Assembly (NCBI RefSeq): GCF_002252525.1
Contig: NZ_NNRM01000016.1
Span: 107,644-171,643 of the forward strand
Reading direction: 5' to 3'
Source: Brucella pseudogrignonensis
GTDB lineage: Bacteria; Pseudomonadota; Alphaproteobacteria; Rhizobiales; Rhizobiaceae
Length of the DNA: 64,000 nt
This document shows, piece by piece, positions 40,617 through 57,032 of the stretch. The notes beneath the pieces were generated by a model, which saw nothing but the letters and a program-made list of their open reading frames with translations, made no database searches and was not told where the DNA came from. Numbering within the stretch: position 1 is the stretch's first letter; each line of letters opens with the position of its first letter. The position numbers and the translations under genes were made by a program.

Positions 40617-42047
40617 ATGAGTGTTATGCCGGAAGCCCAGACTTCGACCAGTGAACCAACCGCGTCACTGGAAGCGAAAAGCAATTTCCGGATTATTGCC
40701 CTGATCGTTGCAAGCGCGATGCTGATGGAACAGCTCGACGCTACCATCCTTGCGACTGCACTGCCGACAATGGCCCGGGATTTTGATGTCGCCGCCCCTT
40801 CGATGAGCGTGGCGCTCACCTCCTATCTGCTCAGCCTTGCGATTTTCATTCCTGCAAGCGGCAAAATCGCCGATCGCTTCGGCACCCGAACCGTGTTCCG
40901 CTTTGCCATCGGCATTTTCATACTCGGCTCGATCCTTTGCGCGCAGGCACCAAATCTGCCCTTTCTGGTCTTTGCCCGTCTGTTGCAAGGTGCCGGCGGA
41001 GCCATGATGCTGCCAGTCGGGCGTCTGGTTCTGATCCGCTCGGTCGAGCGCAAGGATCTCATCTCGGCAATGTCATGGATGCTGGTCCCTGCCCTGATGG
41101 GCCCAATCCTCGGCCCTCCCATCGGTGGTCTGTTCGTGACCTGGCTCGATTGGCGCTGGATTTTCTACATCAATGTGCCGATTGGCATTCTGGGCATGAT
41201 TTTCGTCTCGCTCTATATTGGCGAATATAAAAGCGACACCAGAGAGCCGTTTGATTTCGTCGGCTTGATCCTGTCCGGCATAGCACTTGGCGCGCTGCTT
41301 TTCGGCCTTGAAAGTGCAAGCACGACCAGCGGTCTGGCAGCCAAGTTCTTTGTGGTCGGCATCGTGTTTGCAATTGCAACCGTCATCCACTCGCGCCGCC
41401 ATCCCGCCCCGCTTCTCGATTTTTCGCTGATGCGGATTGAGAGCTTCGGCACCTCGATGATTGCCGGATCGATCACCCGCATCACGCAAGGGGCGCATCC
41501 CTTCTTGTTGCCCTTGATGCTGCAGGTCGCCTTTGGCATTTCAGCGGTTTCTGCTGGTAATATGGTACTGGCCACAGCGCTCGGTTCCATGGCCATGAAA
41601 GCCTTTGCGCCCAAGATCATCCGCCGGTTCGGTTTCCGCTCGTCACTGGTGGTGAACGGCATATTCTCATCATGCAGCTATGCGATTTGTGGCTTCTTCG
41701 GCCCTGAATGGCCACATTGGCTGATTTTTGCCGTGCTGTTCATGTCCGGCTTTTCAATGTCGTTCCAGTTCACCGCCTATAATACGGTGGCCTATGATAA
41801 GGTTGATGAAAAGCGGATGAGTTCGGCCAATAGCTTTTACTCAACCTTCCAGCAGCTCATGCTGTCCTTTGGTGTGTGTATCGGCGCGCTGGCCCTTCAT
41901 TCATCCATGGCCTGGCACGACCGAGACGTGCCACTGACCTCGGATTTCTCGATCGCCTTCTTTATCGTCACCGGCATATCGCTGACAGCAACTTTCTGGA
42001 ACCTGCGCTTTGCAAAACACGCAGGCGAACAGATGCGCGGAAGATGA
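40617..42047 (+). CDS. MFS drug/solute exporter (DHA2 family, EmrB/QacA-like)
   Basis: The 476-residue membrane protein is a DHA2-type major facilitator: MEQLDATILATALPTMA in helix 1, SGKIADRFGTRTVFR (motif A) between helices 2 and 3, RLLQGAGGAMMLPVGRLVL and MLVPALMGPILGPPIGG (motif C-like) in the middle. About 14 hydrophobic segments fit. Substrate unknown; multidrug or organic-anion efflux are typical. It stands alone after the tRNA. Confidence 0.88.
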   Translation: MSVMPEAQTSTSEPTASLEAKSNFRIIALIVASAMLMEQLDATILATALPTMARDFDVAAPSMSVALTSYLLSLAIFIPASGKIADRFGTRTVFRFAIGIFILGSILCAQAPNLPFLVFARLLQGAGGAMMLPVGRLVLIRSVERKDLISAMSWMLVPALMGPILGPPIGGLFVTWLDWRWIFYINVPIGILGMIFVSLYIGEYKSDTREPFDFVGLILSGIALGALLFGLESASTTSGLAAKFFVVGIVFAIATVIHSRRHPAPLLDFSLMRIESFGTSMIAGSITRITQGAHPFLLPLMLQVAFGISAVSAGNMVLATALGSMAMKAFAPKIIRRFGFRSSLVVNGIFSSCSYAICGFFGPEWPHWLIFAVLFMSGFSMSFQFTAYNTVAYDKVDEKRMSSANSFYSTFQQLMLSFGVCIGALALHSSMAWHDRDVPLTSDFSIAFFIVTGISLTATFWNLRFAKHAGEQMRGR

Positions 42048-42058
42048 GGAATGGGGGC

Positions 42059-42823
42059 TTACCCCCCATAAGGCCAGTTGGCCTGCGAGAATACACCACC
42101 ATCGACCCAGAGCGTCTGCCCTGTCACAAAACGCGCAGCGTCGGACGCCAGAAACAGCACCGGCCCTGATATATCCTCGGCAGAACCAACGCGACGCAGC
42201 GGCGTGATCCGGCTCCAGGTGTCTGCATAGTCGGGCTGTTCCTGCATTGTGCGTTCGTTGAGAATGGCGCCCGGCGCAACACAATTGACCCTGATACCAT
42301 TCGGCCCAAGCTCAACAGCAGAGACTTTGGTAAACTGCTCGATACCGCCTTTTGATGCCGTATAGGAAACGAGGCTGGGAAAAGCGAGCTTGTTGCAGCC
42401 CGAGCCTATATTGATGATCGCACCGCCTTTGCCGACCTCGACCATGCGCCGGGCTGCAGCCTGTGTGTTGAGAAAGCAGCCCTTCATATTGGTGCGAATG
42501 ACATCGTCCCAATCGTCTTCCGAAAGCTCCAGCAACGGCCCCCAGGTCTGAATACCGGCATTATTGACGAGCACGTCAGGCGCATCGCCATACCAGCTGC
42601 AGACTTCATCGAAAAATGCGTCAACGTCACTTCCAACGCCGACATCACAAGCGACACCCAGCGCCTGACCGCCTGAAAGCTCAATCTCTTCCATGAGTGT
42701 CTCTGCAGTGTCTTCATCGCCAAGATAGCTGAAAGCCACAGTGTAACCTGCTTCGGCAAATGCTGAGACCAGATGCCTGCCAATGCCGGTGCTGCCACCG
42801 GTGACGACCGCAAATCCACTCAT
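42059..42823 (-). CDS. SDR-family oxidoreductase
   Basis: The 254-residue classical short-chain dehydrogenase has VTGGSTGIGRHL, VLVNNAGIQTWGP, the catalytic Ser in NIGSGCN, YTASKGGIEQF and a C-terminal WVDGGVFSQ, the usual pattern of glucose 1-dehydrogenase-like and 3-oxoacyl-reductase-like SDRs. GGGAGG lies upstream of the ATG. It is divergent from the GFA-family gene and converges with the MFS gene. It may belong to the catabolic set to its right, but lies outside that operon. Confidence 0.88.
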   Translation of the reverse strand: MSGFAVVTGGSTGIGRHLVSAFAEAGYTVAFSYLGDEDTAETLMEEIELSGGQALGVACDVGVGSDVDAFFDEVCSWYGDAPDVLVNNAGIQTWGPLLELSEDDWDDVIRTNMKGCFLNTQAAARRMVEVGKGGAIINIGSGCNKLAFPSLVSYTASKGGIEQFTKVSAVELGPNGIRVNCVAPGAILNERTMQEQPDYADTWSRITPLRRVGSAEDISGPVLFLASDAARFVTGQTLWVDGGVFSQANWPYGG

Positions 42824-42925
42824 AAAATTCCCTCCCGAAATCTTGTGAGTGAGACTTTAGTTGAGTTTTTCCAATGGTAAAGCCGGAAAGACTGAAATAA
42901 AATTCTGGCGAAAGAGGAGATCCGA

Positions 42926-43360
42926 ATGAACCCCAATATTGAAGTTGCCAATGGTGCCTGCCACTGCGGAACCGTTCGCTTTCGCGTCAAACTATCAGAT
43001 GGCCTTAACACTGCGCGCCGCTGCACCTGCTCCTATTGCAGAATGCGTGGAGCTGTCGCCGTTTCCGCAGATCTGAATGGCGTTGAAGTTCTGGAAGGAG
43101 AAGATGCGCTGACGCTCTACACATTCAATACGGGCGCGGCCAAGCATTATTTCTGCTCGAAATGCGGGATCTACACCTTCCACCAGCGCCGATCCAACCC
43201 TCAACAATTCGGTGTCAATGCCGCATGTCTCGAAGGCGTCTCACCTTTCGACTTCAAGGTCATTCCGGTCAATGACGGCGTGAACCACCCGTCCGACAAT
43301 CCGAACTACAAAGGCTCCGGCATCGCGGGTTATCTGCGTTTTGAGGTGAACGAAGACTAA
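42926..43360 (+). CDS. GFA-family (CENP-V) zinc protein
   Basis: The 144-residue protein has the GFA/CENP-V zinc motifs: GACHCGTVRFRV near residue 10, RRCTCSYCRMRG and HYFCSKCGIYTFHQ. The family name derives from a formaldehyde-glutathione enzyme, but that activity is not established for most members. AGAGGAGA precedes the ATG. Its last four bases overlap the end of the GMC gene on the other strand. Confidence 0.88.
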   Translation: MNPNIEVANGACHCGTVRFRVKLSDGLNTARRCTCSYCRMRGAVAVSADLNGVEVLEGEDALTLYTFNTGAAKHYFCSKCGIYTFHQRRSNPQQFGVNAACLEGVSPFDFKVIPVNDGVNHPSDNPNYKGSGIAGYLRFEVNED

Positions 43361-44994
43361 CCCCGCGCGCGCCGTTTGTGTTCGTTTTTCTCCCATGAAA
43401 ACACAACAGGCGGCAGCGGGTCGAGACCGCGAATAATATCCGCACCCTTTTCGCCGACCATGATGGTCGGCGCATTGGTGTTGCACGAGGGAACGCGCGG
43501 CATGATCGAGCTGTCGCAAACCCGCAGACCTTCAAGACCACGCACTTTAAGTTCCAGATCGACAACGGCCATCGCATCCGTCCCCATCCTGCAGGTTCCG
43601 ACCGGATGATGATCGGTCTTGGCATTGGCGCAGGCATAATCGAACAGATCATCGTCACTGACGACCTTTGGCCCCGGCAGACGTTCGGCCATCACATAAG
43701 GTTTCAATGCATCCTGGCTCAGGATTTCGCGCGCGATCTTCAGACCTTCAAGCGACATCTTGCGATCATGCGGATCACTCCAGTAATTCGGGTCGATCAG
43801 GGGGGCTGCAGCCGGATCATTGGAAGCCAGCCGCACGGTTCCACGCGAACGCGGATGCAGATAAGCAGAATTAAGCGTCACGCCTGCATTCTTGAGCTTC
43901 TCGACGCCAGCTTCAATGCCCGAACCAAGCCCCAGATGAAACTGAATATCCGGTGAGCGGGCATCCGGATCAGCATACCAGAAGCCGCCGGTTTCAAAGA
44001 GGCTGGACGCCACCGGGCCAGAGCGCAGAAAGATATATTGCAGGCCCGCGCCCAGCGTCCGATGCAACTTTGCCACGCCATCATAGGTGTGATCGCCCGT
44101 ACATTCGGCAATGACAAACAGATCGAGGTGATCCTGCATGTTCTCACCCACACCCGGCAGATCGTGCCTCACATTAACGCCAGCCTTTTTAAGATGGTCA
44201 GCAGGGCCGATACCCGATTGCAGCAGAAGCTTCGGTGAGCCGATAGCGCCGGACGAGACAATCACCTCGCGGTTTGCGCGCAAAACCTCGCCGCTCATCA
44301 GTGTTACGCCGGTGACTAGGGTCTTTTCGAGATCGATACTGCGCACCGGCGCATTCATCCGCACGGTAAGGTTCTTGCGATCCCTGATCGTCGCGAGATA
44401 GGCAAGGGATGCTGACGAGCGGCGGCGATTGCGCTGGGTGAGCTGATAAAAGCCGACACCTGCCTGCTCACGACCATTGAAATCCGGGTTATACGGAATG
44501 CCGAGTTCTTGACCCGCGCGGATATAGGCGTCGCAAATCGGCAATGGTGCAGACGGCATCGAAACGCCAAGCGGCCCGCCATAGGAGTGAAAATCATCGT
44601 TGAAACGCTGATTGTCTTCAGCCCGTTTGAAATAGGGCAGCACATGGCGATAGTCCCAGCCGGTACAGCCGTCCTCATTAGCCCATAGATCATAATCGGC
44701 TGCATTGCCGCGTGTATAAATCTGCGCATTGATGCTGGAGCCGCCGCCGATGACTTTTGCCTGCGTATAGCGCAACACACGGTTTTTGAGGTGCTTCTGC
44801 GGAACGGTTTCCCACCCCCAGCTCGCCACACCCTTGGTCATCTTTGCAAAACCGGCAGGCATGTGAAACAGCGGATTCCAGTCGCTTCCGCCTGCTTCCA
44901 GCAGCAGCACTTTGATCGCTGCATCTTCGCTCAGACGATTGGCGAGAACGCAACCGGCAGGACCGCCGCCAACAATGATATAGTCATACTTCAT
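43357..44994 (-). CDS. GMC-family FAD-dependent alcohol dehydrogenase (choline-dehydrogenase-like)
   Basis: The 545 residues show the ADP-binding fold DYIIVGGGPAGCVLANRL at the N-terminus, GMC signature 1 GGSSINAQIYTRGNAADYD, and the C-terminal active-site HPVGTCRMG with catalytic His. Members oxidise primary or secondary alcohols (choline, long-chain or aromatic alcohols) at FAD. It is the last gene of the LacI-headed operon, 20 bases after the SDR gene, with GGAGGAG before the ATG. The substrate is unknown. Confidence 0.9.
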   Translation of the reverse strand: MKYDYIIVGGGPAGCVLANRLSEDAAIKVLLLEAGGSDWNPLFHMPAGFAKMTKGVASWGWETVPQKHLKNRVLRYTQAKVIGGGSSINAQIYTRGNAADYDLWANEDGCTGWDYRHVLPYFKRAEDNQRFNDDFHSYGGPLGVSMPSAPLPICDAYIRAGQELGIPYNPDFNGREQAGVGFYQLTQRNRRRSSASLAYLATIRDRKNLTVRMNAPVRSIDLEKTLVTGVTLMSGEVLRANREVIVSSGAIGSPKLLLQSGIGPADHLKKAGVNVRHDLPGVGENMQDHLDLFVIAECTGDHTYDGVAKLHRTLGAGLQYIFLRSGPVASSLFETGGFWYADPDARSPDIQFHLGLGSGIEAGVEKLKNAGVTLNSAYLHPRSRGTVRLASNDPAAAPLIDPNYWSDPHDRKMSLEGLKIAREILSQDALKPYVMAERLPGPKVVSDDDLFDYACANAKTDHHPVGTCRMGTDAMAVVDLELKVRGLEGLRVCDSSIMPRVPSCNTNAPTIMVGEKGADIIRGLDPLPPVVFSWEKNEHKRRARG

Positions 44995-45014
44995 GCGTTT
45001 CTCCTCCCGAGAAA

Positions 45015-45779
45015 CTAAAGCTTCGCAATCGACAGGCCACCATCGGCATTGATCGCCGAGCCCGTCGCAAAAATGAAATCGCCGCCTGCAAGCCCGGCCA
45101 CAATAGCGCCGACATCGCCTGCCTCGCCCCAGCGTTTCATCGGCACCAGACCACCTTCGATCAGTCCGTCATAACGCTCGGCAACACGCGCTGTCATATC
45201 AGTGCGTATGATACCGGGACGCACCTCGAACACGCCGATCCGTGCTTCGGCCAGCCGAAGCGCAAGCCCCTGCACGAAGGCCGTCAGACCCGCTTTGCTG
45301 ATGCAGTAATCAAGCCTTTCGGGCGAAGTCATTACCGACGAAACCGAACTGATCGTCACGATACTGCGCGGAAAACGCACATCCGTCACCGCCAGCATGG
45401 ATTTCACCACCGCTTGCGTAAAAAACACCGTACCGCGCAGGTTCACATCAATAATCGTGTCAAAATTCTCAGGTTTCAGCCCGAGAAAATCGCCGCGCTC
45501 GACCGAGCCCATACCTGCATTGTTGACCAGACAATCGATGCCCCCAAGCTCATTCACAACGGCTGCAACCGTCGCTTCGTGCGTTTCGATAGATGCCAGA
45601 TCGCTTTCAAAGAAAGCCACCCTTCCCCCAAGCCCGCGCAATTCATGGATGACCGCCTCATCACGTTCACGGTCGGTAATCGCCAGATCAAACCCTTTGG
45701 CGGCCAAAGCACGCGCTATGCCAAGCCCGATACCACGCCGCCCGCCAGTCACCAGTGCCACAGGTCTTTGACGGCTCAT
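45015..45779 (-). CDS. SDR-family 3-ketoacyl reductase-like oxidoreductase
   Basis: The 254 residues carry VTGGRRGIGLGIARAL, NNAGMGSVERGD, ISSVSSV with the catalytic Ser, LDYCISKAGLTAF (YxxxK) and a C-terminal INADGGLSIAKL. The best resemblance is to 3-oxoacyl-ACP/CoA reductases annotated in catabolic operons. It overlaps the preceding GMC gene by four bases and has GGAGGTACTGGT before its ATG. Confidence 0.88.
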   Translation of the reverse strand: MSRQRPVALVTGGRRGIGLGIARALAAKGFDLAITDRERDEAVIHELRGLGGRVAFFESDLASIETHEATVAAVVNELGGIDCLVNNAGMGSVERGDFLGLKPENFDTIIDVNLRGTVFFTQAVVKSMLAVTDVRFPRSIVTISSVSSVMTSPERLDYCISKAGLTAFVQGLALRLAEARIGVFEVRPGIIRTDMTARVAERYDGLIEGGLVPMKRWGEAGDVGAIVAGLAGGDFIFATGSAINADGGLSIAKL

Positions 45780-47269
45780 ACCAGTACCTCCGCTTGAATG
45801 TGATCAGCAACGCGCAGAGCCTGCGCGGCAATGGTCAGCGCGGGATTAACCGCCGCCGATGTCGGCAGAAACGACGCATCGACCACATAGAGATTGGGGT
45901 GATCATAAGCACGGCAATAAGGATCAAGCGGCGCTGTTGCTGGATTATTGCCGATACGTACCGTGCCGCATTGATGCGATGGTGTTCGCCTGTCGAACGC
46001 CCGCGACAGCACGATTGGAAACCCTGCTGCACGCAGCGCCGATTTGAGCTTATCAACCAGCATCAGATGCGCCTTCCAGTTGGAACGCACCCAATGCAGA
46101 ATGATGCGATCACCATCCACGCTCACGCGACTTTCCGGCGATGGCAGATCTTCGCTCATCGCGTAGAAATCAATCGTATGTCCGGCAATGCGGTTTAAAA
46201 GCCATTCCGGCACCTGGCGCATATTGGATTTCAGGATCGCGCCCGAAACCCGCCCCAGCAATTGCACATTGCCAAGCGGTGGCCCGCCAGCCCCATCGCT
46301 GAGATAGTAGTCGTTAAAGCCAAAGGTCTTCTGGTAGACGCTGTCATTGCGATAGCGCGGATCAAACCCAATCACCGCACTGGCATTGTGGTTCATGAAA
46401 TTGCGACCGACCTGATCGGAACGGTTCGCCAGTCCCGAACGCAGCAAAAGCGCTGCCGACTGAACCGCACCCGCTGAAAGAATGACGAGCTTTGGACGCA
46501 GGACCAGCGCTTCGCCATTCTTCACATAATGAACAGCTGTAATGGTTTTACCATCAGGCCCGGTTTCCAGCTTCGTTACCCGCGCGGAGGTTTCAAGCCG
46601 GACATTTGGATGTTTGAGCGCAAGTGCTAACGGACAAGTCTCCGCATCCATCTTGCCGTCATTGCTGTTGGGATGCGCGTCCCACGGCGTTTTTGCCTTC
46701 GCCAGCCAGCGCTCAATATCAACACCTAATGGCAAGGAAGCCGGATGCAACCCTGCCTTCTTCAGTCGTGCACGCAGATCGGCAATCGGGCTTTCATCAC
46801 GGATAGCTGGATAGGAATAGGGCTTAGAATGATAGGGTTCGGTCGGGTCATCGCCCAATTCACCGCGCACCTGAAAAAGCTCTTCCGCCTTGCAATACCA
46901 GGGTTCAAGTTCATCATAGGCGAAGGGCCACGCCGGAGACACGCCTTCAAGATGCGCAAGCTCCTCAAAATCCTCGCGCCGATAGCGCACCAACACTGCG
47001 CCATAGAATTTGGAATTGCCGCCGACATTGTAATAATTTCCGGGATTGAACGGCGTGCCATCCGTCTCATACCAGAATTCTTTCGGGCGAAAGAAACCAC
47101 GCTGGAAAATGGCGCGTGGATCGCGGTTTTCCGGTCTGTCCGGCAGATGCTCCCCTGCCTCAAGAATAAGAATGTCGGCACCTGATGCGCTCAGACCGGC
47201 GGCCATCGTCGCGCCGCCGATACCCGATCCGATAATGACGATATCCGGCTGTCCTCCCAAAGCCGTCAC
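45776..47269 (-). CDS. GMC-family FAD-dependent oxidoreductase (second)
   Basis: The 497-residue flavoprotein opens DIVIIGSGIGGATMAAGLS (FAD fold), has YNVGGNSKFYGAVLVRYR, and ends with HQCGTVRIGNNPATAPLDPY and VVDASFLPTSAAVNPALTI. The pattern fits the gluconate/sugar dehydrogenase branch of GMC proteins rather than choline dehydrogenase. No cytochrome c or small subunit gene adjoins, which that branch often needs. The start is a GTG four bases after the ALDH stop, so translation is probably coupled. Confidence 0.86.
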   Translation of the reverse strand: MTALGGQPDIVIIGSGIGGATMAAGLSASGADILILEAGEHLPDRPENRDPRAIFQRGFFRPKEFWYETDGTPFNPGNYYNVGGNSKFYGAVLVRYRREDFEELAHLEGVSPAWPFAYDELEPWYCKAEELFQVRGELGDDPTEPYHSKPYSYPAIRDESPIADLRARLKKAGLHPASLPLGVDIERWLAKAKTPWDAHPNSNDGKMDAETCPLALALKHPNVRLETSARVTKLETGPDGKTITAVHYVKNGEALVLRPKLVILSAGAVQSAALLLRSGLANRSDQVGRNFMNHNASAVIGFDPRYRNDSVYQKTFGFNDYYLSDGAGGPPLGNVQLLGRVSGAILKSNMRQVPEWLLNRIAGHTIDFYAMSEDLPSPESRVSVDGDRIILHWVRSNWKAHLMLVDKLKSALRAAGFPIVLSRAFDRRTPSHQCGTVRIGNNPATAPLDPYCRAYDHPNLYVVDASFLPTSAAVNPALTIAAQALRVADHIQAEVLV

Positions 47270-47272
47270 TCC

Positions 47273-48787
47273 CTACTTAGCCTGCGGCATCCACCAGCCG
47301 GTGCGCGCACCGATATGCATGTTGAGCGTTTTGGTTTCGGTATAATCCTCCACCGCATGACGGCCCAACTCGCGACCCAGACCCGACTGGCGATAACCGC
47401 CAAAAGGCAGTTCTGGTGTGCCATCCATGAAAGTGTTCATCCAGACTGTACCGGCGCGCACCTTGCGCCCGATGCTCATGCAGGTATCGAAATCGCGGCT
47501 CCAAACGCCAGCCGAAAGCCCGTAATCAACCGCGTTGGCAATGGAGATCGCCTCATCCACCGTATCGAAGGAAAGCACCGACAGGACAGGACCGAACACT
47601 TCTTCACGCGCCACGGCCATGTCGGCTTTCACGCCTGCAATGATGGTCGGCCCCATATATTGGCCGAGGCCGAGATCCAGCACATCGCCGCCATGGGCAA
47701 TCGCAGCGCCCGCCTTCTTGGCCTGATCGACATAAGCGCCAACCTTGCTCAGATGCTGCGGCGTGATGATCGCGCCCACCTGCGTGCTGACATCGAGCGG
47801 ATCACCGACGATGACCTTTTTCGACAGATCAGCGACGCGCCCGACAATCTCATCGACAATCGAGCGATGCACGATCAGCCGCGAACCGGCATTGCAGCAT
47901 TCGCCCGCATTGAACCATGCGCCAAACACCGCAGCGTCGATGAAGGCATCCATATCCGCATCCGGGAACAGGATTTGCGGGTTCTTGCCGCCAAGTTCCA
48001 GCGACACTTTCTTCAGCGTCTGCGCCGCATTGGCCATGGTCAGCTTGCCGACACCAGTGGAACCGGTGAATGACACCATGTCCACATCCGGATGCGTGCT
48101 CATATGCTGGCCGACATCAGCACCCGTTCCGGTGACGATGTTGACCACCCCGTCCGGCACGCCTGCCTCGGCCAGAATTTCACCCAGCACCAGTGTCGAA
48201 CCAGAGGTTAGTTCCGAAGGCTTTACAACCGCCGTGCAACCCGCCGCCAAGGCGAAAGGCAGCTTCTGACCGACGATCAGGAACGGAAAGTTCCACGGCG
48301 TGATGATGGAGACAACACCAATCGCCTCACGCAGCACAACGCCCAAAGTGCCATCGCCCAGCGTATTATAACTCTCGCCATGCAGATCACGCGCAAGCGC
48401 TGCCGCATAACGCCAGATATCGACGGAACCGGCAATCTCGCCGCGTACCTGACTGATCGGCTTTCCAGCTTCTATCGCATCGAGATAGGCAAGCTCTTCC
48501 GCCCGCGCTTCGATCAGATCAGCGGCTTTCAGCAGCACCAGCGAGCGCTGCGATGCCGTTTTGGACGACCAGCGCCCGTCATCGAAAGCCTTGCGCGCTG
48601 CCGCAACGGCGCGTTCCACATCCGCCTTGTTGCCAGTGGGATAACGGCTCACCGTCACGCCATGGCCGGGAGCAACGCGCTCGATGCTGCCGCCGCTCTG
48701 GCTTTGCACCCATTTGCCATCGATCAGCATGGAGAATTCGCGGACAGCCAGTCCTGCCAGCGGCTGCGGTTTTACGATCGTGCTCAT
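47273..48787 (-). CDS. NAD(P)-dependent aldehyde dehydrogenase
   Basis: The 504-residue enzyme is a typical ALDH: ITPWNFPFLIVGQKL, FTGSTGVGKLTM (cofactor), ELGGKNPQILF (general base Glu) and NAGECCNAGSRL (catalytic Cys). It converts an aldehyde made by a GMC enzyme to the acid; substrate unknown. The start at 48787 overlaps the crotonase stop codon (TGATG) and has GGGAGA at good distance; the ATG two codons earlier would be too close to that site. Confidence 0.92.
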   Translation of the reverse strand: MSTIVKPQPLAGLAVREFSMLIDGKWVQSQSGGSIERVAPGHGVTVSRYPTGNKADVERAVAAARKAFDDGRWSSKTASQRSLVLLKAADLIEARAEELAYLDAIEAGKPISQVRGEIAGSVDIWRYAAALARDLHGESYNTLGDGTLGVVLREAIGVVSIITPWNFPFLIVGQKLPFALAAGCTAVVKPSELTSGSTLVLGEILAEAGVPDGVVNIVTGTGADVGQHMSTHPDVDMVSFTGSTGVGKLTMANAAQTLKKVSLELGGKNPQILFPDADMDAFIDAAVFGAWFNAGECCNAGSRLIVHRSIVDEIVGRVADLSKKVIVGDPLDVSTQVGAIITPQHLSKVGAYVDQAKKAGAAIAHGGDVLDLGLGQYMGPTIIAGVKADMAVAREEVFGPVLSVLSFDTVDEAISIANAVDYGLSAGVWSRDFDTCMSIGRKVRAGTVWMNTFMDGTPELPFGGYRQSGLGRELGRHAVEDYTETKTLNMHIGARTGWWMPQAK

Positions 48788-49563
48788 CACCATTCTCCCT
48801 TAAAATTCGCTTCGCGCTTTTCGCTGAACGAGCGCACGCCTTCCTTCAGATCGCCGGTCTTGGCGACAAGGATGGAACCCAATGCCTCGACGGCGGTTCC
48901 ATTGTCCTCGCCATTGGCGACGGAAAGCATCAGTTTGGAAATTTCCAGTGCAGCGGGTCCGCGCTTGGCCACCCGCGCCGCATAGTCTTGTGCTGCCTGC
49001 AAAGCTGCGCCCGTCTCCACAACGGCATCGACAAGCCCATGTGACAGCGCTTCTTCAGCCGTGAACATTTCGCCGCCCAGCACCATGCGGCGCACGATCT
49101 GCGCACCGAAACGGCGCACAAGGCGCTGCGTACCCGACCAGCCGGGGATCATGCCAAGCGAGGTTTCCGGCAAGCCGATCTTCGCCTGTCGTTCGACAAT
49201 GCGGATATCGGCAGCGCCTGCCAGTTCCAGACCGCCGCCCAAAGCATGGCCGTTCATCGCTGCGATCAGTGGCACACGCAAAGTCGCAAGCCGCTCGAAC
49301 ACACGATGACCGTAGCGCACCCAGGCATGGCCGAATTCCGCCGGTTCCATGCCGCCCCAGGCCTTGATGTCACCGCCGGCAGAAAAGGCTTTGCCCTCAC
49401 CGGTCAGGATTGCAACCCGCACGCTGCTATCCGCCTCCACCCGATCACAGGCTGCAGACAATTCCTGCAAAAGCTCAATATCGAATGCATTGAGCTTTTC
49501 GGGACGCTTGATCGTCATGACCGCGATGTGGTTCTCGGTCGCAATTTCTATCCGATCAGCCAT
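48787..49563 (-). CDS. enoyl-CoA hydratase/isomerase (crotonase) family protein
   Basis: The 258-residue protein has the crotonase pattern: MTIKRPEKLNAFDIELLQEL, AFSAGGDIKAWGG (oxyanion hole), ALGGGLELAGAADIRI and LPETSLGMIPGWSGTQRL with the second catalytic Glu region. It would act on a CoA ester formed by the CoA-transferase encoded immediately upstream. The start at 49563 follows GGAGGCGTGAA; one base separates it from the CoA-transferase stop codon. An extended open frame to 49638 is inside that gene. Confidence 0.92.
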   Translation of the reverse strand: MADRIEIATENHIAVMTIKRPEKLNAFDIELLQELSAACDRVEADSSVRVAILTGEGKAFSAGGDIKAWGGMEPAEFGHAWVRYGHRVFERLATLRVPLIAAMNGHALGGGLELAGAADIRIVERQAKIGLPETSLGMIPGWSGTQRLVRRFGAQIVRRMVLGGEMFTAEEALSHGLVDAVVETGAALQAAQDYAARVAKRGPAALEISKLMLSVANGEDNGTAVEALGSILVAKTGDLKEGVRSFSEKREANFKGEW

Positions 49564-49564
49564 T

Positions 49565-51166
49565 TCACGCCTCCAGCTTTCGCGCAGGCTTTTGCGGCAG
49601 CGAGAGCCCAATCGGCTCTTCGCGGAACAGCGCTTCATCCATAATTTTGAGCTGATCGGAAACGATCAGCGGAAACTCAGCCTGATCGAGAATATGCGCC
49701 TGCAAATCCACACCCGGCGCAATCTCGGTGAGTACAATGCCTTCCGCCGTCAGCTTCATCACAGCGCGTTCCGTGACATAGGTGATGTCCTGTCCCTGCG
49801 CGACACTGCGCGGACCGGAGAAGGTGACATGCTCGACTTCATTGACGAGTTTTTTGAGCTTACCTTCCTTCTCGATCACCAGCTTGCCATCGGCGACGGA
49901 AAGCTTGGCCCCTGCATTGAACATGCCGGAGAAAACGATCATCCTGGCCCTTGCCGTAATGTCCACAAAGCCGCCTGCCCCTGCCGTGACATGCGGACGG
50001 AATGACAGCTTCGACACATTGACCGAGCCGTCGCGTCCGATCTCCAGGAAGGACAAGAGCGACGCATCGAAGCCTGCGCCCTGAAAATAGGTGAACTGAT
50101 AGGGCGATGGCATATAAGCGTCGGCATTCGCCGCGCAGCCAAAGGCAAAATCCAGCAATGGCACGCCGCCAACAGCGCCCTGCTCGATCACCCATGTCAC
50201 GGCGCCGTGCAGGCCTTCCTCCAGCAGAATACGCGGCACATTGGCGGAAATGCCAAAGCCGAGATTGACCGCGCTGCCCGCCTGCAATTCCTGTGAGACA
50301 CGGCGCGCTATCGCCTTCTGGATATTAAATTCGGCCAGACGAAACGTATCGATCGGGCGGAAGATCTCGCCCGAAATCGCCGGATCATACAGCGTTTGCG
50401 TCGTCTGTTTCTGGTCGGGATCGACCACGATATAATCAACCAGAACGCCCGGCACTCGCACATCATGCGGCTTCAGCGTGCCTTCCTTAGCGATGCGCTT
50501 TACCTGCGCAATGACGATGCCGCCATTGTTGCGCGCAGCCAGCGCCTGATCCAGCCCACCAAGATAAGCGCCTTCATGCTCATAGGTGAGGTTGCCACGC
50601 TCATCCGCCGTCGTGGCGCGAATGATCGCCACTTGCGGGATGATGGAAGGAAAATAGAGCCAGTCTTCGCCTTCGAAGCTGACATGTTTCACAACCGGTT
50701 CCTGCGCGGCCTTGTCATTCATCGCCGTGCCCTGACGCTTTGGATCGACAAACGTATCAAGACCCACCTTGGTCAGCACGCCGGGGCGCTTGGCCGCAGC
50801 TTCGCGGTGCATATCGAACAAAATGCCCGACGGAATATTATAGGCCGGAATCTCATTATTGGTGATCATCTGCCAGATCAGCGGCGGCTCGGCACTGGAC
50901 GGGCCCGACGGATAGGAACCGCCGATGATCTTCCTCAGCAATCCCGTCTTGGCAATGTAATCCACGCCCTTTATGCCGCTCATATCGCCCGCCGCAATCG
51001 GATGCAGCGTGGTGATATTTTTCGGATGGCCGGTTTCATCAAAGCGCTCGCCGATGGCTTTCAGCGTCAGATCGGGACAGCCAAGACCGCTTGATGATGA
51101 GACGGAAACGACAGCGTTATCGGGAATAAGTGATGCTGCTTCCGCAAATGAAATATGTTTGCTCAT
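49565..51166 (-). CDS. acyl-CoA:acetate/3-ketoacid CoA transferase, fused alpha-beta (YdiF type)
   Basis: The 533-residue class-I CoA-transferase fuses the alpha domain (SVSSSSGLGCPDLTLKAI near residue 20; HPIAAGDMSGIKGVDYIA) and the beta domain (VNLGFGISANVPRILLEEG, then VIEQGAVGG, the probable catalytic Glu). It moves CoA from a donor such as acetyl- or succinyl-CoA to a free acid, thereby feeding the crotonase and SDR. The start at 51166 is favoured; AGGAC lies in the end of the upstream gene, five bases away from the Gfo stop codon. Confidence 0.9.
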   Translation of the reverse strand: MSKHISFAEAASLIPDNAVVSVSSSSGLGCPDLTLKAIGERFDETGHPKNITTLHPIAAGDMSGIKGVDYIAKTGLLRKIIGGSYPSGPSSAEPPLIWQMITNNEIPAYNIPSGILFDMHREAAAKRPGVLTKVGLDTFVDPKRQGTAMNDKAAQEPVVKHVSFEGEDWLYFPSIIPQVAIIRATTADERGNLTYEHEGAYLGGLDQALAARNNGGIVIAQVKRIAKEGTLKPHDVRVPGVLVDYIVVDPDQKQTTQTLYDPAISGEIFRPIDTFRLAEFNIQKAIARRVSQELQAGSAVNLGFGISANVPRILLEEGLHGAVTWVIEQGAVGGVPLLDFAFGCAANADAYMPSPYQFTYFQGAGFDASLLSFLEIGRDGSVNVSKLSFRPHVTAGAGGFVDITARARMIVFSGMFNAGAKLSVADGKLVIEKEGKLKKLVNEVEHVTFSGPRSVAQGQDITYVTERAVMKLTAEGIVLTEIAPGVDLQAHILDQAEFPLIVSDQLKIMDEALFREEPIGLSLPQKPARKLEA

Positions 51167-51171
51167 AATTT

Positions 51172-53207
<2,036 letters not shown>

Positions 53208-53226
53208 ATCCGTCTCCTGTTCCCTT

Positions 53227-53255
53227 AGATAATTGGAACGATCCAAATTTGTCAA
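53227..53255 (-). promoter_or_regulatory. LacI operon promoter with operator in the spacer
   Basis: On the minus strand TTGACA (53255-53250) and TTATCT (53232-53227) are separated by exactly 17 bases, and the spacer contains the palindrome TTGGATCGTTCCAA. A bound LacI dimer would cover the core promoter, so the gene is very probably autorepressed. Confidence 0.85.
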
Positions 53256-53373
53256 CTTTTTTAATAACCACGGAATTGCCATATTCTTGACATCGGTTTT
53301 CCTTAATTTTTGAAGCATTTCGCGACGCTAAATGCAAAATCAGAGCCTGAAATCGCATTTTTTACGCACCATA

Positions 53374-53402
53374 TTGAAATTTGGAACGATCTAAATTATT
53401 CA
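53374..53402 (+). promoter_or_regulatory. DUF993 gene promoter with operator in the spacer
   Basis: TTGAAA (53374-53379) and TATTCA (53397-53402) are 17 bases apart. The spacer contains TTTGGAACGATCTAAA, one arm imperfect, otherwise the same site as at 53233-53246. The start codon lies 27 bases downstream with GGAGG between. Confidence 0.8.
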
Positions 53403-53428
53403 TGTCGTCGTGGAGTTGGAGGACTGAC

Positions 53429-54607
53429 ATGAGCGCATCATCAGAAAACGTGCTGACCCTGCCATTCGTTGATGGCAGTGTAAAACCATATCACCTGATC
53501 GGCACCCCGACACCGCGCCCCGCCTCTCCTCCAAAATTCAACCGCATTGCCTATGCCGCAGCGCATGTTGTTTCAGACCCGCTGAGAGACAGCAATCCGT
53601 GGAACGCGCCGGCAATTGACTGGGATGCGACAATGGCTTTCCGCCACCACCTCTGGAGCCTCGGCTTTCAGATCGCGGAAGCGATGGATACCTCGCAACG
53701 CGGCATGGGTCTCAATTGGGCCGGAGCGCAGGAGCTGATCCGCCGCTCGCTGGCAGAAAGCAAGACCGTAGCAGGTGCTGATCTGGCCTCTGGCGCTGGC
53801 ACTGACCATCTCGACCCGTCGGAGGCAAAAAGCCTTGATGACGTGATTAAGGCCTATGAAACCCAGGCTGAATTTATCGAGAAGAACGGCGGTCGTTTCA
53901 TTCTGATGGCCAGCCGCGCACTCGCTCGCATCGCCCGCTCGCCAGAGGATTATGCCAAGGTTTATGGCCATATTCTCACTCATGCCCGCGACAAGGTCGT
54001 GCTGCACTGGCTGGGCGACATGTTCGACCCACAACTCAAAGGTTACTGGGGTTCAGACAAGTTTGAAGACGCGCTTGATACGGTCATCGGCATTATAGAG
54101 GCCAATCGCGACAAGGTTGAAGGCATCAAGATTTCGCTGCTCGAAGAGCGCTACGAAATCGCGCTTCGCAATCGCCTGCCGGACGGCGTTCTCTGTTTTA
54201 CGGGCGATGATTTCAACTATGCACCACTCATCGAAGGCGACGGCAACAAACACAGCCATGCGCTGCTTGGCATTTTCGATGCAGTGGCACCACAGGCTTC
54301 AAGCGCGCTTGCCGCCCTCGCAGACGGTGACAATGCCCGCTTCCGCGCGATCATCGAGCCAACCGTGCCACTATCGCGCAAAATCTTTGAAGCACCGACG
54401 CAGTATTACAAAGCAGGCGTTGTGTTTCTCGCCTGGCTCAATGGACACCAAAGCCATTTCACCATGCCCGCCGGAATGCAATCGGCACGCAGTATCCTGC
54501 ATTATGCCGATATTTTCCGCCTCGCGGATCAGGCAAATGTTCTCGATCATCCGGAAATTGCCCTTACCCGCATGAAAACTCTTCTGGCGGTTTACGGCTT
54601 AAACTGA
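53429..54607 (+). CDS. DUF993 family protein, dihydrodipicolinate-synthase-like
   Basis: The 392-residue protein belongs, to my recognition, to DUF993, placed by fold in the dihydrodipicolinate synthase/N-acetylneuraminate lyase superfamily. Landmarks are AAAHVVSDPLRDSNPWNAP, FQIAEAMDTSQRGMGLNW and LEERYEIALRNRLPDGVL followed by TGDDFNYAPLIEGDG. The lyase fold suggests retro-aldol or dehydratase chemistry on a sugar-acid-like substrate; no reaction is established. The start at 53429 follows GGAGGACTGAC. It is divergent from lacI and shares its operator type, so it belongs to the same regulon. Confidence 0.85.
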   Translation: MSASSENVLTLPFVDGSVKPYHLIGTPTPRPASPPKFNRIAYAAAHVVSDPLRDSNPWNAPAIDWDATMAFRHHLWSLGFQIAEAMDTSQRGMGLNWAGAQELIRRSLAESKTVAGADLASGAGTDHLDPSEAKSLDDVIKAYETQAEFIEKNGGRFILMASRALARIARSPEDYAKVYGHILTHARDKVVLHWLGDMFDPQLKGYWGSDKFEDALDTVIGIIEANRDKVEGIKISLLEERYEIALRNRLPDGVLCFTGDDFNYAPLIEGDGNKHSHALLGIFDAVAPQASSALAALADGDNARFRAIIEPTVPLSRKIFEAPTQYYKAGVVFLAWLNGHQSHFTMPAGMQSARSILHYADIFRLADQANVLDHPEIALTRMKTLLAVYGLN

Positions 54608-54836: not shown

Positions 54837-57032
54837 ATGACAAAATATAAGATATTTATAAAGTCTATAATACTTAGTTTTTTCACTTCTCAAGCATGGG
54901 CTGATGTACCCACTTTCGAGGTTCATGGTTCATTTGGCGGTGAACGTGCTGATGCGGCTGGCATATCAGCGGATGGCAAAACAATTGGCATACACCGATC
55001 ATCTGCGGGCGGTGATTACGATAAATCCTTTATCGTGACGCCGGCCGGTATAACCGATATCGGCTCGTTAAGCGGTTCAGAACGAACAGCACTTTTGGCA
55101 GTTTCATCCAATGGTCTTGCCGCAATAGGCAGCGCATTTGTCAATCAAGCTGAATCACATGCCTTCTGGTGGTCCCGCGAAACCGGAATAAGAGATATCG
55201 GAACACTGGGCGGAACGAATTCATATTCCAGAGGAATTTCGGCCAACGGAACTGTTGTTACCGGAGACAGCTACCTCGCAGGCGACACCATAACCAATGC
55301 ATTTCGCTGGACACTTCAGGATGGTATTACCAGCATCGGTACACTTGGCGGGTCATCGTCATTTACCCATGCGATTTCGGCTGATGGCAGTACGATCGTG
55401 GGTTACAGTTTGACGGCATCGTCCGATGTCCACGCCTTCCGATGGACCGAGGCCAGTGGCATTGTAAGTCTTCAAACTTTGGGTGGAAACACGTCGACAG
55501 CGCGTGCCGTTTCCGCTGATGGGAGTGTCGTTGTAGGCACCAGCGACACCGCCGATAGCTCCCAGCATGCATTCCGCTGGACTGCCGAGACCGGCATGGT
55601 CGATATCAATATTCACGGAAATGCGCTGTATAGTATTGCCGATCTGGTTTCAAACGATGGCAAGGTTGTGGTGGGAACAGCCTCATTCAACAATGGGTTC
55701 AACCAGGCTTTTCGCTGGACCCAGGAAGCAGGCATGATCAGTCTGGGCTCGCTAGGCGGCGGCCTGTCTCACGCTCTCAGCCTCAGCGACGATGGCACAG
55801 CGATCGTAGGCTATAGCTATACCGATACGATGGCGCTCCGTGCATTTCGCTGGACAGCCAGTGACGGCATAATTGATTTGGGAACAATTGGCGGCAACAA
55901 CGCGATTGCCTGGGATGTATCAGGGGATGGCAGCGTGATCGCCGGAACAGCTGAAACAGCTGAAGGAGCGCTTCACGCCACGCTGTGGAAATTTCCAAAG
56001 CCCGATCCGGGAACGATACCAACTGAGCCTGAAGGCAACCCAGGTACCACGCCGACAAATCCGGGCTCCGGTCCAACGGAAAACCCTTCTGCTGAAAAAC
56101 CTGTCACGTCTCCAACAACCATCGACCTTGATCATACGGTTGCGACGGTCTTCACACAGGCAAGTAACAGCTTTTCGGCGATGGAGGCTCAGCGCCTTAC
56201 ATTGAACAAGCTGCAAAACTTTTGCGACATTGAAAGAGCCGGCCAGACCTGCTATTCGCTTTTTACCGATATCAGCGGCTTTGGCGGTCAGAAGGATTTG
56301 CTGACAGGTTTCACGCTTGGTCACGGCTTCACCGACAATTTTTCAGCAGGTGTCACCCTCGCCCATTCTTTCTGGCGTGATCTGCCGGACGGTTTTGATA
56401 CCGGAAGCGATAATTTCGGCACTGGCATCTTTGCGCAGTGGAAAGACAAGACCGCTATAGGGGATTGGTATATGCGGGCGAGCCTGGCAACCAATCGCTA
56501 TGATACCGACATCACGCGGCCAAAGCTCGCCTATACAGAAGCTGGAACCGGCGAAAGCAGGTTACAAGGCTGGAGCACTGCGCTGGAACTGGGGCGGACA
56601 GACAATCTCAATTTCCATAATGCCCGTCTCGGCTATTATGGCGGTCTGCGCTACAGCAATCTGTCCATGGATGGCTATACGGAAAGCAATGCGCTGTTTC
56701 CGTTCACTTATGGTGACATGAAATATGAGCTGACCACGGCTTATGCGGGTACAAATTTCACTATGCCGCTGACCGACAGAATCCGATGGTCGATCAATCT
56801 CGAAATCGAGCAGGATGTTGCGCACAAGGATCCCGAATTTGACGCCAGAGCTGATTATATCGGCGTATTGACGCTCGATTCCGACTTCTCACATACCAGA
56901 GGTTCCGCCTGGACAAGTGTGAGTTATGCCGTCAGCGATGCGGTTGAACTTTCATTGACACCCTATGTGACCCGCACGGCATCGCGGGACAATGCGTTTG
57001 GTGCCATGGTCCGGCTTTCCGGGAAATTCTGA
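54837..57032 (+). CDS. autotransporter with HAF-repeat passenger
   Basis: The 731-residue protein has a signal peptide (KIFIKSIILSFFTSQAWA), eight repeats of about 45 residues at roughly 35-385, each with (I/V)SADG...VG and HAFRWT..(G)..LGTLGG (the HAF repeat), a Pro/Gly/Thr-rich linker (PGTIPTEPEGNPGTTP) at about 388-420, and a C-terminal beta-barrel of about 280 residues ending in Phe (MVRLSGKF), as in outer-membrane autotransporters. The passenger would be displayed on the cell surface; no function is established for HAF proteins. AUA codons and AT-rich bases dominate the first 20 codons. Confidence 0.9.
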   Translation: MTKYKIFIKSIILSFFTSQAWADVPTFEVHGSFGGERADAAGISADGKTIGIHRSSAGGDYDKSFIVTPAGITDIGSLSGSERTALLAVSSNGLAAIGSAFVNQAESHAFWWSRETGIRDIGTLGGTNSYSRGISANGTVVTGDSYLAGDTITNAFRWTLQDGITSIGTLGGSSSFTHAISADGSTIVGYSLTASSDVHAFRWTEASGIVSLQTLGGNTSTARAVSADGSVVVGTSDTADSSQHAFRWTAETGMVDINIHGNALYSIADLVSNDGKVVVGTASFNNGFNQAFRWTQEAGMISLGSLGGGLSHALSLSDDGTAIVGYSYTDTMALRAFRWTASDGIIDLGTIGGNNAIAWDVSGDGSVIAGTAETAEGALHATLWKFPKPDPGTIPTEPEGNPGTTPTNPGSGPTENPSAEKPVTSPTTIDLDHTVATVFTQASNSFSAMEAQRLTLNKLQNFCDIERAGQTCYSLFTDISGFGGQKDLLTGFTLGHGFTDNFSAGVTLAHSFWRDLPDGFDTGSDNFGTGIFAQWKDKTAIGDWYMRASLATNRYDTDITRPKLAYTEAGTGESRLQGWSTALELGRTDNLNFHNARLGYYGGLRYSNLSMDGYTESNALFPFTYGDMKYELTTAYAGTNFTMPLTDRIRWSINLEIEQDVAHKDPEFDARADYIGVLTLDSDFSHTRGSAWTSVSYAVSDAVELSLTPYVTRTASRDNAFGAMVRLSGKF

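What the first reader, a model, noticed from the sequence alone, without database searches (positions are those of the whole stretch)
42059..54607. Uncharacterised LacI-controlled catabolic divergon joining sugar-type and acyl-CoA-type enzymes
A LacI regulator heads Gfo/Idh/MocA, fused CoA-transferase, crotonase, aldehyde dehydrogenase, GMC, SDR and a second GMC gene, with tight coupling (1-5 base gaps or overlaps), and a divergent DUF993 lyase-like gene. The combination suggests oxidation of an alcohol to aldehyde and acid, CoA activation, hydration and oxidation, then lyase cleavage, but no thiolase or transporter is present. I do not recognise a described pathway with this set.
Basis: partly seen in the sequence, partly recalled or inferred. 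Interest (0 to 1): 0.75.

Follow-up and report, generated by a model that had tools for sequence, protein, structure and literature searches.

The report
Anhydro-sugar degradation operon with DUF993
A group of genes kept together across nitrogen-fixing bacteria and their relatives contains the known enzyme for 1,5-anhydrofructose, so it is probably the missing aerobic pathway that eats such sugars, and it gives a first testable job to an enzyme family of unknown function.

Summary
Eight minus-strand genes (LacI, Gfo/Idh/MocA, CoA-transferase, crotonase, ALDH, GMC, SDR, GMC) face a plus-strand DUF993 gene; the SDR at 42059-42823 lies outside the operon. The unit is real: in 80 related loci all five core neighbours of DUF993 are present in 73, and two copies of a LacI-type operator sit in 77 of 80 divergent regions (1 control site in 1.58 Mb). 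A rearranged version in two more distant genomes keeps the same genes. DUF993 has the dihydrodipicolinate-synthase barrel and an invariant lysine at the Schiff-base position, but lacks the GTTGE and YNxP motifs. Best reading: an aerobic, non-phosphorylating, CoA-dependent pathway for 1,5-anhydrofructose, 1,5-anhydroglucitol or 1,5-anhydromannitol, with DUF993 as the C-C-cleaving lyase. A 2025 review calls the enzyme after AFR unidentified and says no oxidative anhydroglucitol pathway is described. Against: three genomes keep the cluster without AFR, and a P450 route is not excluded. Substrate and step order are inferred; no activity was tested.

The parts
53429..54607 (+). The lysine numbered K250 from 53381 is invariant
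   Evidence: PF06187 612 bits; 4dnh homologue 57% identity; model and fold match; K250 in 22 of 22; profile alignment puts it on the DapA lysine
53380..53395 (.). LacI-type operator 2, TTTGGAACGATCTAAA, upstream of DUF993
53232..53247 (.). LacI-type operator 1, ATTGGAACGATCCAAA, upstream of LacI
52152..53207 (-).
   Evidence: PF00356 and PF00532; start from sequence
51172..52173 (-). 1,5-anhydro-D-fructose reductase (AFR) orthologue, Gfo/Idh/MocA family
   Evidence: 2glx E 2e-167, 74.6% identity; 4koa 72%; A13, S33, K94, H180 kept (roles recalled)
49565..51166 (-). fused family I CoA-transferase, YdiF type (probable ATG start)
   Evidence: PF01144; 2ahu YdiF E 1e-111
48787..49563 (-). crotonase with both hydratase glutamates (corrected start)
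   Evidence: PF00378; best PDB match 3-hydroxypropionyl-CoA dehydratase 5zai; GLELA and LPE motifs
47273..48793 (-). aldehyde dehydrogenase
   Evidence: PF00171 569 bits; LELGGK and cysteine motif
45776..47269 (-). GMC flavoprotein GMCa, similar to FAD glucose dehydrogenase and fructose dehydrogenase
   Evidence: conserved in the cluster
45015..45779 (-). SDR of NCBIfam PRK12745 (SDR2)
   Evidence: 376.8 bits, cut-off 250; same family beside DUF993 in a Caballeronia cluster
43357..44994 (-). GMC flavoprotein GMCb, choline-dehydrogenase/alcohol-oxidase type; last gene of the operon
   Evidence: conserved

Best explanation
This is a LacI-controlled pathway for aerobic, non-phosphorylating breakdown of 1,5-anhydrohexoses: 1,5-anhydro-D-fructose (AF) and probably the polyols 1,5-anhydro-D-glucitol (AG) and 1,5-anhydro-D-mannitol (AM). 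Shown for an orthologue by others (abstract recalled, restated in a review section read here): AFR reduces AF to AM. Inferred here: uptake by the CUT1 ABC transporter (in the cluster in relatives, on another contig here); a cytoplasmic GMC flavoenzyme oxidises AG at C2 to AF, so GMC plus AFR would turn AG into AM; GMCb and ALDH oxidise a primary alcohol to the acid; the CoA-transferase makes the CoA ester; the crotonase removes water beta to the thioester, which loosens the ring ether; SDR2 sets a ketone; DUF993 forms a Schiff base through its invariant lysine and cuts a C-C bond; a three-carbon product leaves as glycerate via glycerate kinase. LacI binds two operators and represses both arms until an intermediate of the pathway accumulates. 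The set of enzymes and the presence of the operators are well supported. The substrate class is moderately supported. The order of steps is a proposal (about 0.2).
For: AFR identity: 74.6% to characterised 2glx; six Sinorhizobium/Ensifer cluster members are 85-87% identical to 2glx and up to 93.7% to 4koa, so among the loci held the closest relatives of the characterised gene lie in this cluster. In 151 genomes of the family (own included), 32 have an AFR match at E <= 1e-90 and all 32 also have DUF993; 26 of them have AFR at 64% identity or more, and DUF993 lies 2.2-2.7 kb away (start to start) in 25; in the 26th the two are on separate contigs and the DUF993 match is cut by a contig end. Five core neighbours all present in 73 of 80 loci. 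Full order with ABC transporter, GMCa, SDR2, GMCb in 10 of 11 fetched stretches, chosen from 13 genomes. A rearranged one-strand cluster with the same genes at 40-81% identity in both AFR-bearing stretches among 7 fetched. Two operators in 77 of 80. The in-cluster binding protein, SMc04396 by gene order only, is reported as induced by dextrin, an alpha-glucan (PMC4960864, one passage). AG is reported in alfalfa roots, higher in inoculated ones (PMC5504246, passages). DUF993: DHDPS fold, invariant lysine. The crotonase keeps both glutamates; in Octadecabacter a MaoC dehydratase stands near the CoA-transferase and no crotonase is listed in the stretch (that gene table can be incomplete). Glycerate kinase in 4 of 11 and Dabb in 7 of 11 fetched stretches.
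Against: AFR is missing from the whole genome (E <= 1e-60) in 3 of 3 Mesorhizobium genomes checked that keep the rest of the core, so AF cannot be the only substrate. ALDH is almost wholly deleted in L028. DUF993 occurs without AFR in 15 of the 47 family genomes that have it, and in clusters without AFR or without a listed CoA-transferase in other taxa. Published work (as reviewed) gives AM to mannose by C1 hydroxylation, and P450 genes lie elsewhere in all 16 genome handles tested, own genome included (two of the handles, G407 and G426, appear to be one genome), so that route is not excluded. DUF993 lacks the pyruvate-binding GTTGE motif, which argues against a simple 2-keto-3-deoxy-acid aldolase and leaves its substrate open. 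No operator was found at the relocated transporter. The operator pattern was taken from these same sites, so its counts in the window are partly circular; the test is the other loci and the control.
Confidence: 0.5

Rival explanations
1. AFR activity on AF is a side reaction; the operon degrades another carbohydrate taken up by the CUT1 transporter, such as a 2-keto-aldose (osone), a deoxy-polyol or an alpha-glucan-derived sugar, by the same oxidise, activate, dehydrate, cleave logic.
For: AFR also reduces osones (recalled); AFR is lost while the rest is kept in 3 Mesorhizobium genomes; DUF993 works beside other Gfo/Idh or SDR enzymes and other transporters in other taxa; the binding protein is reported to respond to dextrin.
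Against: AFR lies 2.2-2.7 kb from DUF993 in 25 of 26 genomes and residues tied to AFR activity are kept.
Confidence: 0.3
2. AF is reduced to AM and AM is hydroxylated at C1 to mannose by a P450-like enzyme elsewhere in the genome; the CoA-transferase, crotonase and DUF993 serve an unrelated substrate and only share a regulator with AFR.
For: The published scheme as reviewed; P450 genes in all 16 genome handles tested, two of which appear to be one genome.
Against: No P450 match lies inside the cluster in those genomes (compared with the cluster positions); AFR lies between LacI and the CoA-type genes, overlapping LacI and 5 bases from the CoA-transferase, and stays with them even in a rearranged cluster.
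Confidence: 0.12
3. The CoA-transferase and crotonase degrade an acyl group carried by an acylated sugar, while AFR, SDR and DUF993 treat the sugar part.
For: The mixed set of enzymes; acyl-CoA dehydrogenase and ETF join the set in pSymA and Paracoccus clusters.
Against: No esterase or thiolase among the ten genes; the same CoA-transferase and crotonase pair stays with DUF993 in a small Caballeronia cluster.
Confidence: 0.06

Closest known systems
1,5-anhydro-D-fructose catabolism of Sinorhizobium morelense (AFR; Kuhn, Yu and Giffhorn 2006, not read, known from the review PMC12441222 and recall)
   Same: The AFR enzyme; among the loci held its closest relatives lie in this cluster
   Different: The published route goes AF to AM to mannose with an unidentified hydroxylase; here AFR sits in a CoA-dependent gene set with DUF993, GMC and SDR enzymes and no P450
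Anaerobic anhydroglucitol pathway of gut bacteria (glycyl radical enzymes YbiW and PflD, as described in PMC12441222 section 5.1)
   Same: Same family of anhydrohexitol substrates
   Different: That route phosphorylates the sugar and needs a glycyl radical enzyme; neither a kinase nor such an enzyme is among the ten genes here
myo-Inositol (iol) catabolism
   Same: Gfo/Idh/MocA first enzyme; ring polyol broken by dehydration and C-C cleavage (recalled)
   Different: The Gfo protein scores 156 bits against the IolG model, cut-off 355; no Pfam family of the other iol enzymes among the ten genes
DHDPS/NAL class I aldolases, for example YagE and 4-hydroxy-2-oxoglutarate aldolase
   Different: GTTGE and YNxP motifs absent; extra conserved segments; 9-18% identity in the listed structural matches
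Ferulate-type CoA route (acyl-CoA formation, crotonase lyase, aldehyde dehydrogenase; recalled)
   Same: Order CoA activation, crotonase, ALDH
   Different: The crotonase keeps both hydratase glutamates; the ferulate enzyme is recalled to have serine at one of them

Membership tests
1,5-anhydro-D-fructose reductase (EC 1.1.1.292, number recalled) | Closest homology to the characterised enzyme | tested here: met
   74.6% identity to 2glx; next PDB family at E 7e-32 against 2e-167
1,5-anhydro-D-fructose reductase (EC 1.1.1.292, number recalled) | NADPH-site and catalytic residues A13, S33, K94, H180 (roles recalled) | tested here: met
   All four identical
1,5-anhydro-D-fructose reductase (EC 1.1.1.292, number recalled) | Reduction of AF to AM | not testable with these tools
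   needs an enzyme assay
DHDPS/NAL class I aldolases (for DUF993) | DHDPS-type TIM barrel | tested here: met
   profile comparison E 1.3e-7, probability 94%, one target
DHDPS/NAL class I aldolases (for DUF993) | Schiff-base lysine on strand 6 | tested here: met
   K250 invariant in 22 of 22 and aligned with the DapA GVK lysine (that this is the Schiff-base lysine is recalled)
DHDPS/NAL class I aldolases (for DUF993) | GTTGE carboxylate-binding motif and YNxP tyrosine motif (roles recalled) | tested here: not met
   Absent from the 22-sequence alignment; H209-W210 stand near the tyrosine
Crotonase-type enoyl-CoA hydratase | Two catalytic glutamates | tested here: met
   GLELA and LPE
Family I CoA-transferase, YdiF type | Fused alpha and beta domains | tested here: met
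   2ahu aligned over residues 8-528
Family I CoA-transferase, YdiF type | Catalytic glutamate | tested here: inconclusive
   A simple ENG motif search found none; several E-x-G sites, not mapped onto YdiF
LacI-type local regulator | HTH plus sugar-binding domain, with palindromic CG-centred operators at the regulated promoters | tested here: met
LacI-type local regulator | Identity of the inducer | not testable with these tools
   needs induction or binding assays
beta-oxidation | Acyl-CoA dehydrogenase and thiolase in the set | tested here: not met
   Neither among the ten genes
myo-Inositol catabolism | IolG membership | tested here: not met
   156 bits, cut-off 355
P450 route for anhydromannitol | P450 gene linked to afr | tested here: not met
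   P450 matches in all 16 genome handles tested, all outside the clusters; the route itself is not excluded

The most novel reading that the evidence does not exclude
The operon is a complete aerobic, P450-independent, CoA-dependent pathway for 1,5-anhydroglucitol, 1,5-anhydromannitol and 1,5-anhydrofructose, and DUF993 is the founding member of a new branch of Schiff-base lyases that act on a keto-sugar without an alpha-carboxylate.
Probability: 0.3. Interest if true: 0.75.

Novelty: new variant of a known kind. Interest (0 to 1): 0.55.

Why it matters
AFR has been known since 2006, but what happens after it has stayed open: a 2025 review still writes 'still unidentified' for the next enzyme, says an analogous oxidative 1,5-anhydroglucitol pathway has not been described, and notes that lowering this polyol in the gut would need an enzyme that works in air, in the setting of the neutropenia of glycogen storage disease type Ib and G6PC3 deficiency (PMC12441222). 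The cluster names the candidate genes, so the question can be tested with deletions in a standard laboratory rhizobium. It also gives functional context to DUF993 (PF06187), a family with a solved but uncharacterised structure (4dnh), found in 36 of 398 sampled genomes of the phylum and in no paper of the library under that name.

Tried and rejected
Literature: 'DUF993' gave 0 papers; a six-term enzyme search gave 0; 'SMa1409' gave one unrelated paper; the LacI regulon review was searched by term for anhydro, AfrR and sorbose with no hits; 'anhydro-D-fructose' with Sinorhizobium gave 8 papers, three of them opened at passages, none describing this cluster in what was seen. Locus-tag searches gave 2 papers each, opened at passages. 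Two broad searches gave 97 and 859 papers, of which only the 15 listed rows each were looked at. Searches gave one paper each, not opened. The library holds open-licence papers only, so 'not described' means not found in these searches.
Full report
What is there. The closest related locus is from Brucella sp. 21LCYQ03, DUF993 94% identical, so I infer a Brucella sensu lato (Ochrobactrum-type) host. Ten predicted proteins were scanned and all first-stage gene names hold. The operon is LacI, AFR, CoA-transferase, crotonase, ALDH, GMCa, SDR2, GMCb on the minus strand, with DUF993 divergent. Start sites were corrected from the sequence: LacI 53207, crotonase 49563, CoA-transferase probably 51166, DUF993 53429. 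The SDR at 42059-42823 lies beyond a GFA gene on the plus strand and is not counted as part of the unit, nor is the MFS gene at 40617-42047.

Regulation. The region between LacI and DUF993 holds two palindromes, ATTGGAACGATCCAAA and TTTGGAACGATCTAAA, 148 bases apart. A pattern made from them matches in the window at these two places only, each on both strands (4 matches with up to 2 mismatches, 0.41 expected, none of 100 shuffles reaching 4). In the own genome the two are the only perfect matches; two other places match with 1 mismatch, as many as the reversed control. With a slightly widened pattern and up to 1 mismatch, 77 of 80 related divergent regions hold two sites and 3 hold one (L007, L023 and L047, the last a cut contig); the rest of those loci, 1.58 Mb, holds one site. 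The pattern was derived from some of these loci, so the control, not the count alone, carries the weight.

Conservation. In these 80 loci all five core neighbours (ALDH, ECH, CoAT, AFR, LacI) are present in 73, four in 5, three in 1 and none in 1; the last is a 3.4-kb contig. In 13 genomes searched for GMCa all 13 have a relative at 66-91% identity. Eleven stretches from these were fetched: 10 show LacI, AFR, CoAT, ECH, ALDH, a four-gene CUT1 ABC transporter, GMCa, SDR2, GMCb in one order with DUF993 divergent; the eleventh, from the Rhizobium tubonense contig, shows GMCa alone. Dabb follows GMCb in 7 of 11 and glycerate kinase in 4 of 11; some stretches end soon after. The window and seven related Brucella-type loci (L002-L006, L028, L044) have no room for the transporter before GMCa; the own genome keeps it on contig C42 at 81-88% identity, and a glycerate kinase on C8 at 69%. 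Of seven further stretches fetched, the two with an AFR relative (51-56% identity) hold the same genes on one strand with DUF993 and LacI moved to the other end; the five without AFR show other sets, three of them another Gfo/Idh protein, DUF993 and a sugar-phosphate-isomerase-like protein. A rearranged but intact set is good evidence that these proteins work together.

The key enzyme. The Gfo/Idh/MocA protein matches 1,5-anhydro-D-fructose reductase of Sinorhizobium morelense (2glx, 74.6%) and 4koa (72%), far above any other solved relative. Six Sinorhizobium and Ensifer cluster members are 85-87% identical to 2glx and up to 93.7% to 4koa. Four residues recalled as important for AFR are kept. 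In 151 genomes of the family, 32 have AFR at E <= 1e-90 and 47 have DUF993 at E <= 1e-60; all 32 are among the 47. Of 26 with AFR at 64% identity or more, DUF993 lies 2.2-2.7 kb away in 25, and in the other the genes are on separate contigs with the DUF993 match cut by a contig end. Of the six weaker ones, five have DUF993 13-15 kb away and one (G498) on another contig.

Other DUF993 settings. In plasmid records, whose gene tables can be incomplete, DUF993 goes with CoA-transferase, glycerate kinase, acyl-CoA dehydrogenase, SDR, a sugar-phosphate-isomerase-like protein and ETF (S. meliloti pSymA and Paracoccus; a crotonase is listed in Paracoccus), with MFS, crotonase, CoA-transferase, SDR and the isomerase-like protein (Caballeronia, Paraburkholderia), or with other Gfo/Idh proteins and no listed CoA-transferase (Erwinia, Chelatococcus, Pseudoroseomonas, Paroceanicella). 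DUF993 therefore seems to serve a wider class of sugars or sugar acids, and the afr cluster is one version.

Proposed chemistry. AF to AM by AFR is shown for the orthologue (as reported in the review). The rest is inference: C2 oxidation of anhydroglucitol by a GMC enzyme (GMCa resembles FAD glucose and fructose dehydrogenases; pyranose oxidase is recalled to act so on anhydroglucitol), oxidation of the primary alcohol by GMCb and ALDH, CoA transfer, dehydration by the crotonase (both glutamates present; best PDB match 3-hydroxypropionyl-CoA dehydratase), ring opening, ketone formation by SDR2 and C-C cleavage by DUF993, with glycerate as one end product. Both GMC proteins have their flavin-binding motif at the very N-terminus, so they are probably cytoplasmic. 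The missing GTTGE motif argues that DUF993's ketone partner is not a 2-keto acid.

Results against. AFR is absent from three Mesorhizobium genomes that keep the rest; ALDH is mostly deleted in L028; 15 family genomes have DUF993 without AFR; P450 genes exist elsewhere in all 16 genome handles tested, two of which (G407, G426) share the same P450 coordinates and appear to be one genome, so the published hydroxylation to mannose is not excluded; the relocated transporter has no copy of the operator.

Literature. PMC12441222 (section 5.1 read whole, other passages): the step after AFR is attributed to an unidentified P450-like enzyme and no analogous oxidative anhydroglucitol pathway is described. 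PMC4960864 (one passage and a reference entry): smc04396 induced by dextrin, citing Mauchline 2006, which is not held. PMC5504246 (passages): anhydroglucitol in alfalfa roots, log2 ratio 5.58 between inoculated and uninoculated plants. PMC12542648 (passages): SMc04390 to SMc04392 listed as L-sorbose dehydrogenase, SDR and putative dehydrogenase, with negative log2 changes in a phbC phaR strain relative to phbC. PMC4560400 (passages): SMc04401 listed as a chromosomal regulator. That SMc04390 to SMc04402 are this cluster is inferred from gene order and from a recalled statement that afr is SMc04400. Kuhn 2006 is not held.

Verdict. The unit is real and conserved, one enzyme is known, and the pathway was not found described in the searches made. 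Scored as a new variant of a known kind: a sugar-catabolic LacI divergon with a probable new route. Interest 0.55.

Noticed in passing
L060, L062, L063: Mesorhizobium ciceri-type genomes have lost AFR from between LacI and CoA-transferase, and genome-wide at E <= 1e-60, while keeping the rest of the core.
   Followed up: partly
L028 about 5160-5339: ALDH of Brucella daejeonensis is reduced to remnants of its two ends; the neighbouring genes still match.
   Followed up: partly
L139:8185-9315 (-): A second LacI-family gene lies on the opposite strand between ALDH and the ABC transporter; checked by Pfam in this locus only, but its shadow ORF matches in 22 loci, so the transporter may have its own regulator there.
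   Followed up: partly
L152:9254-13602 (own genome contig C42): The afr-type ABC transporter stands apart from the operon here, preceded by a different palindrome AAGACAACGTTGTCAA.
   Followed up: partly
L117 (S. meliloti pSymA): A second DUF993 cluster has an acyl-CoA dehydrogenase whose best NCBIfam model is acryloyl-CoA reductase (375 bits, below the cut-off of 640), with ETF, glycerate kinase and CoA-transferase; its substrate is unknown.
   Followed up: no
L118: A distant DUF993 protein (44% identity) sits beside a type I polyketide synthase on a Streptomyces plasmid; it keeps the lysine but has lost the GDDF motif.
   Followed up: no
window 42926-43360 (+): GFA-family gene (PF04828) on the strand opposite to the operon, between GMCb and the unrelated SDR.
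   Followed up: yes
window 54837-57032 (+): Autotransporter-like protein right after DUF993; one of 80 related loci (L002, 61%) shows a relative next to it.
   Followed up: no
L003:10001-11221: The DUF993 match of Ochrobactrum sp. RH2CCR150 has one stop in its translation over these coordinates; not examined further.
   Followed up: no
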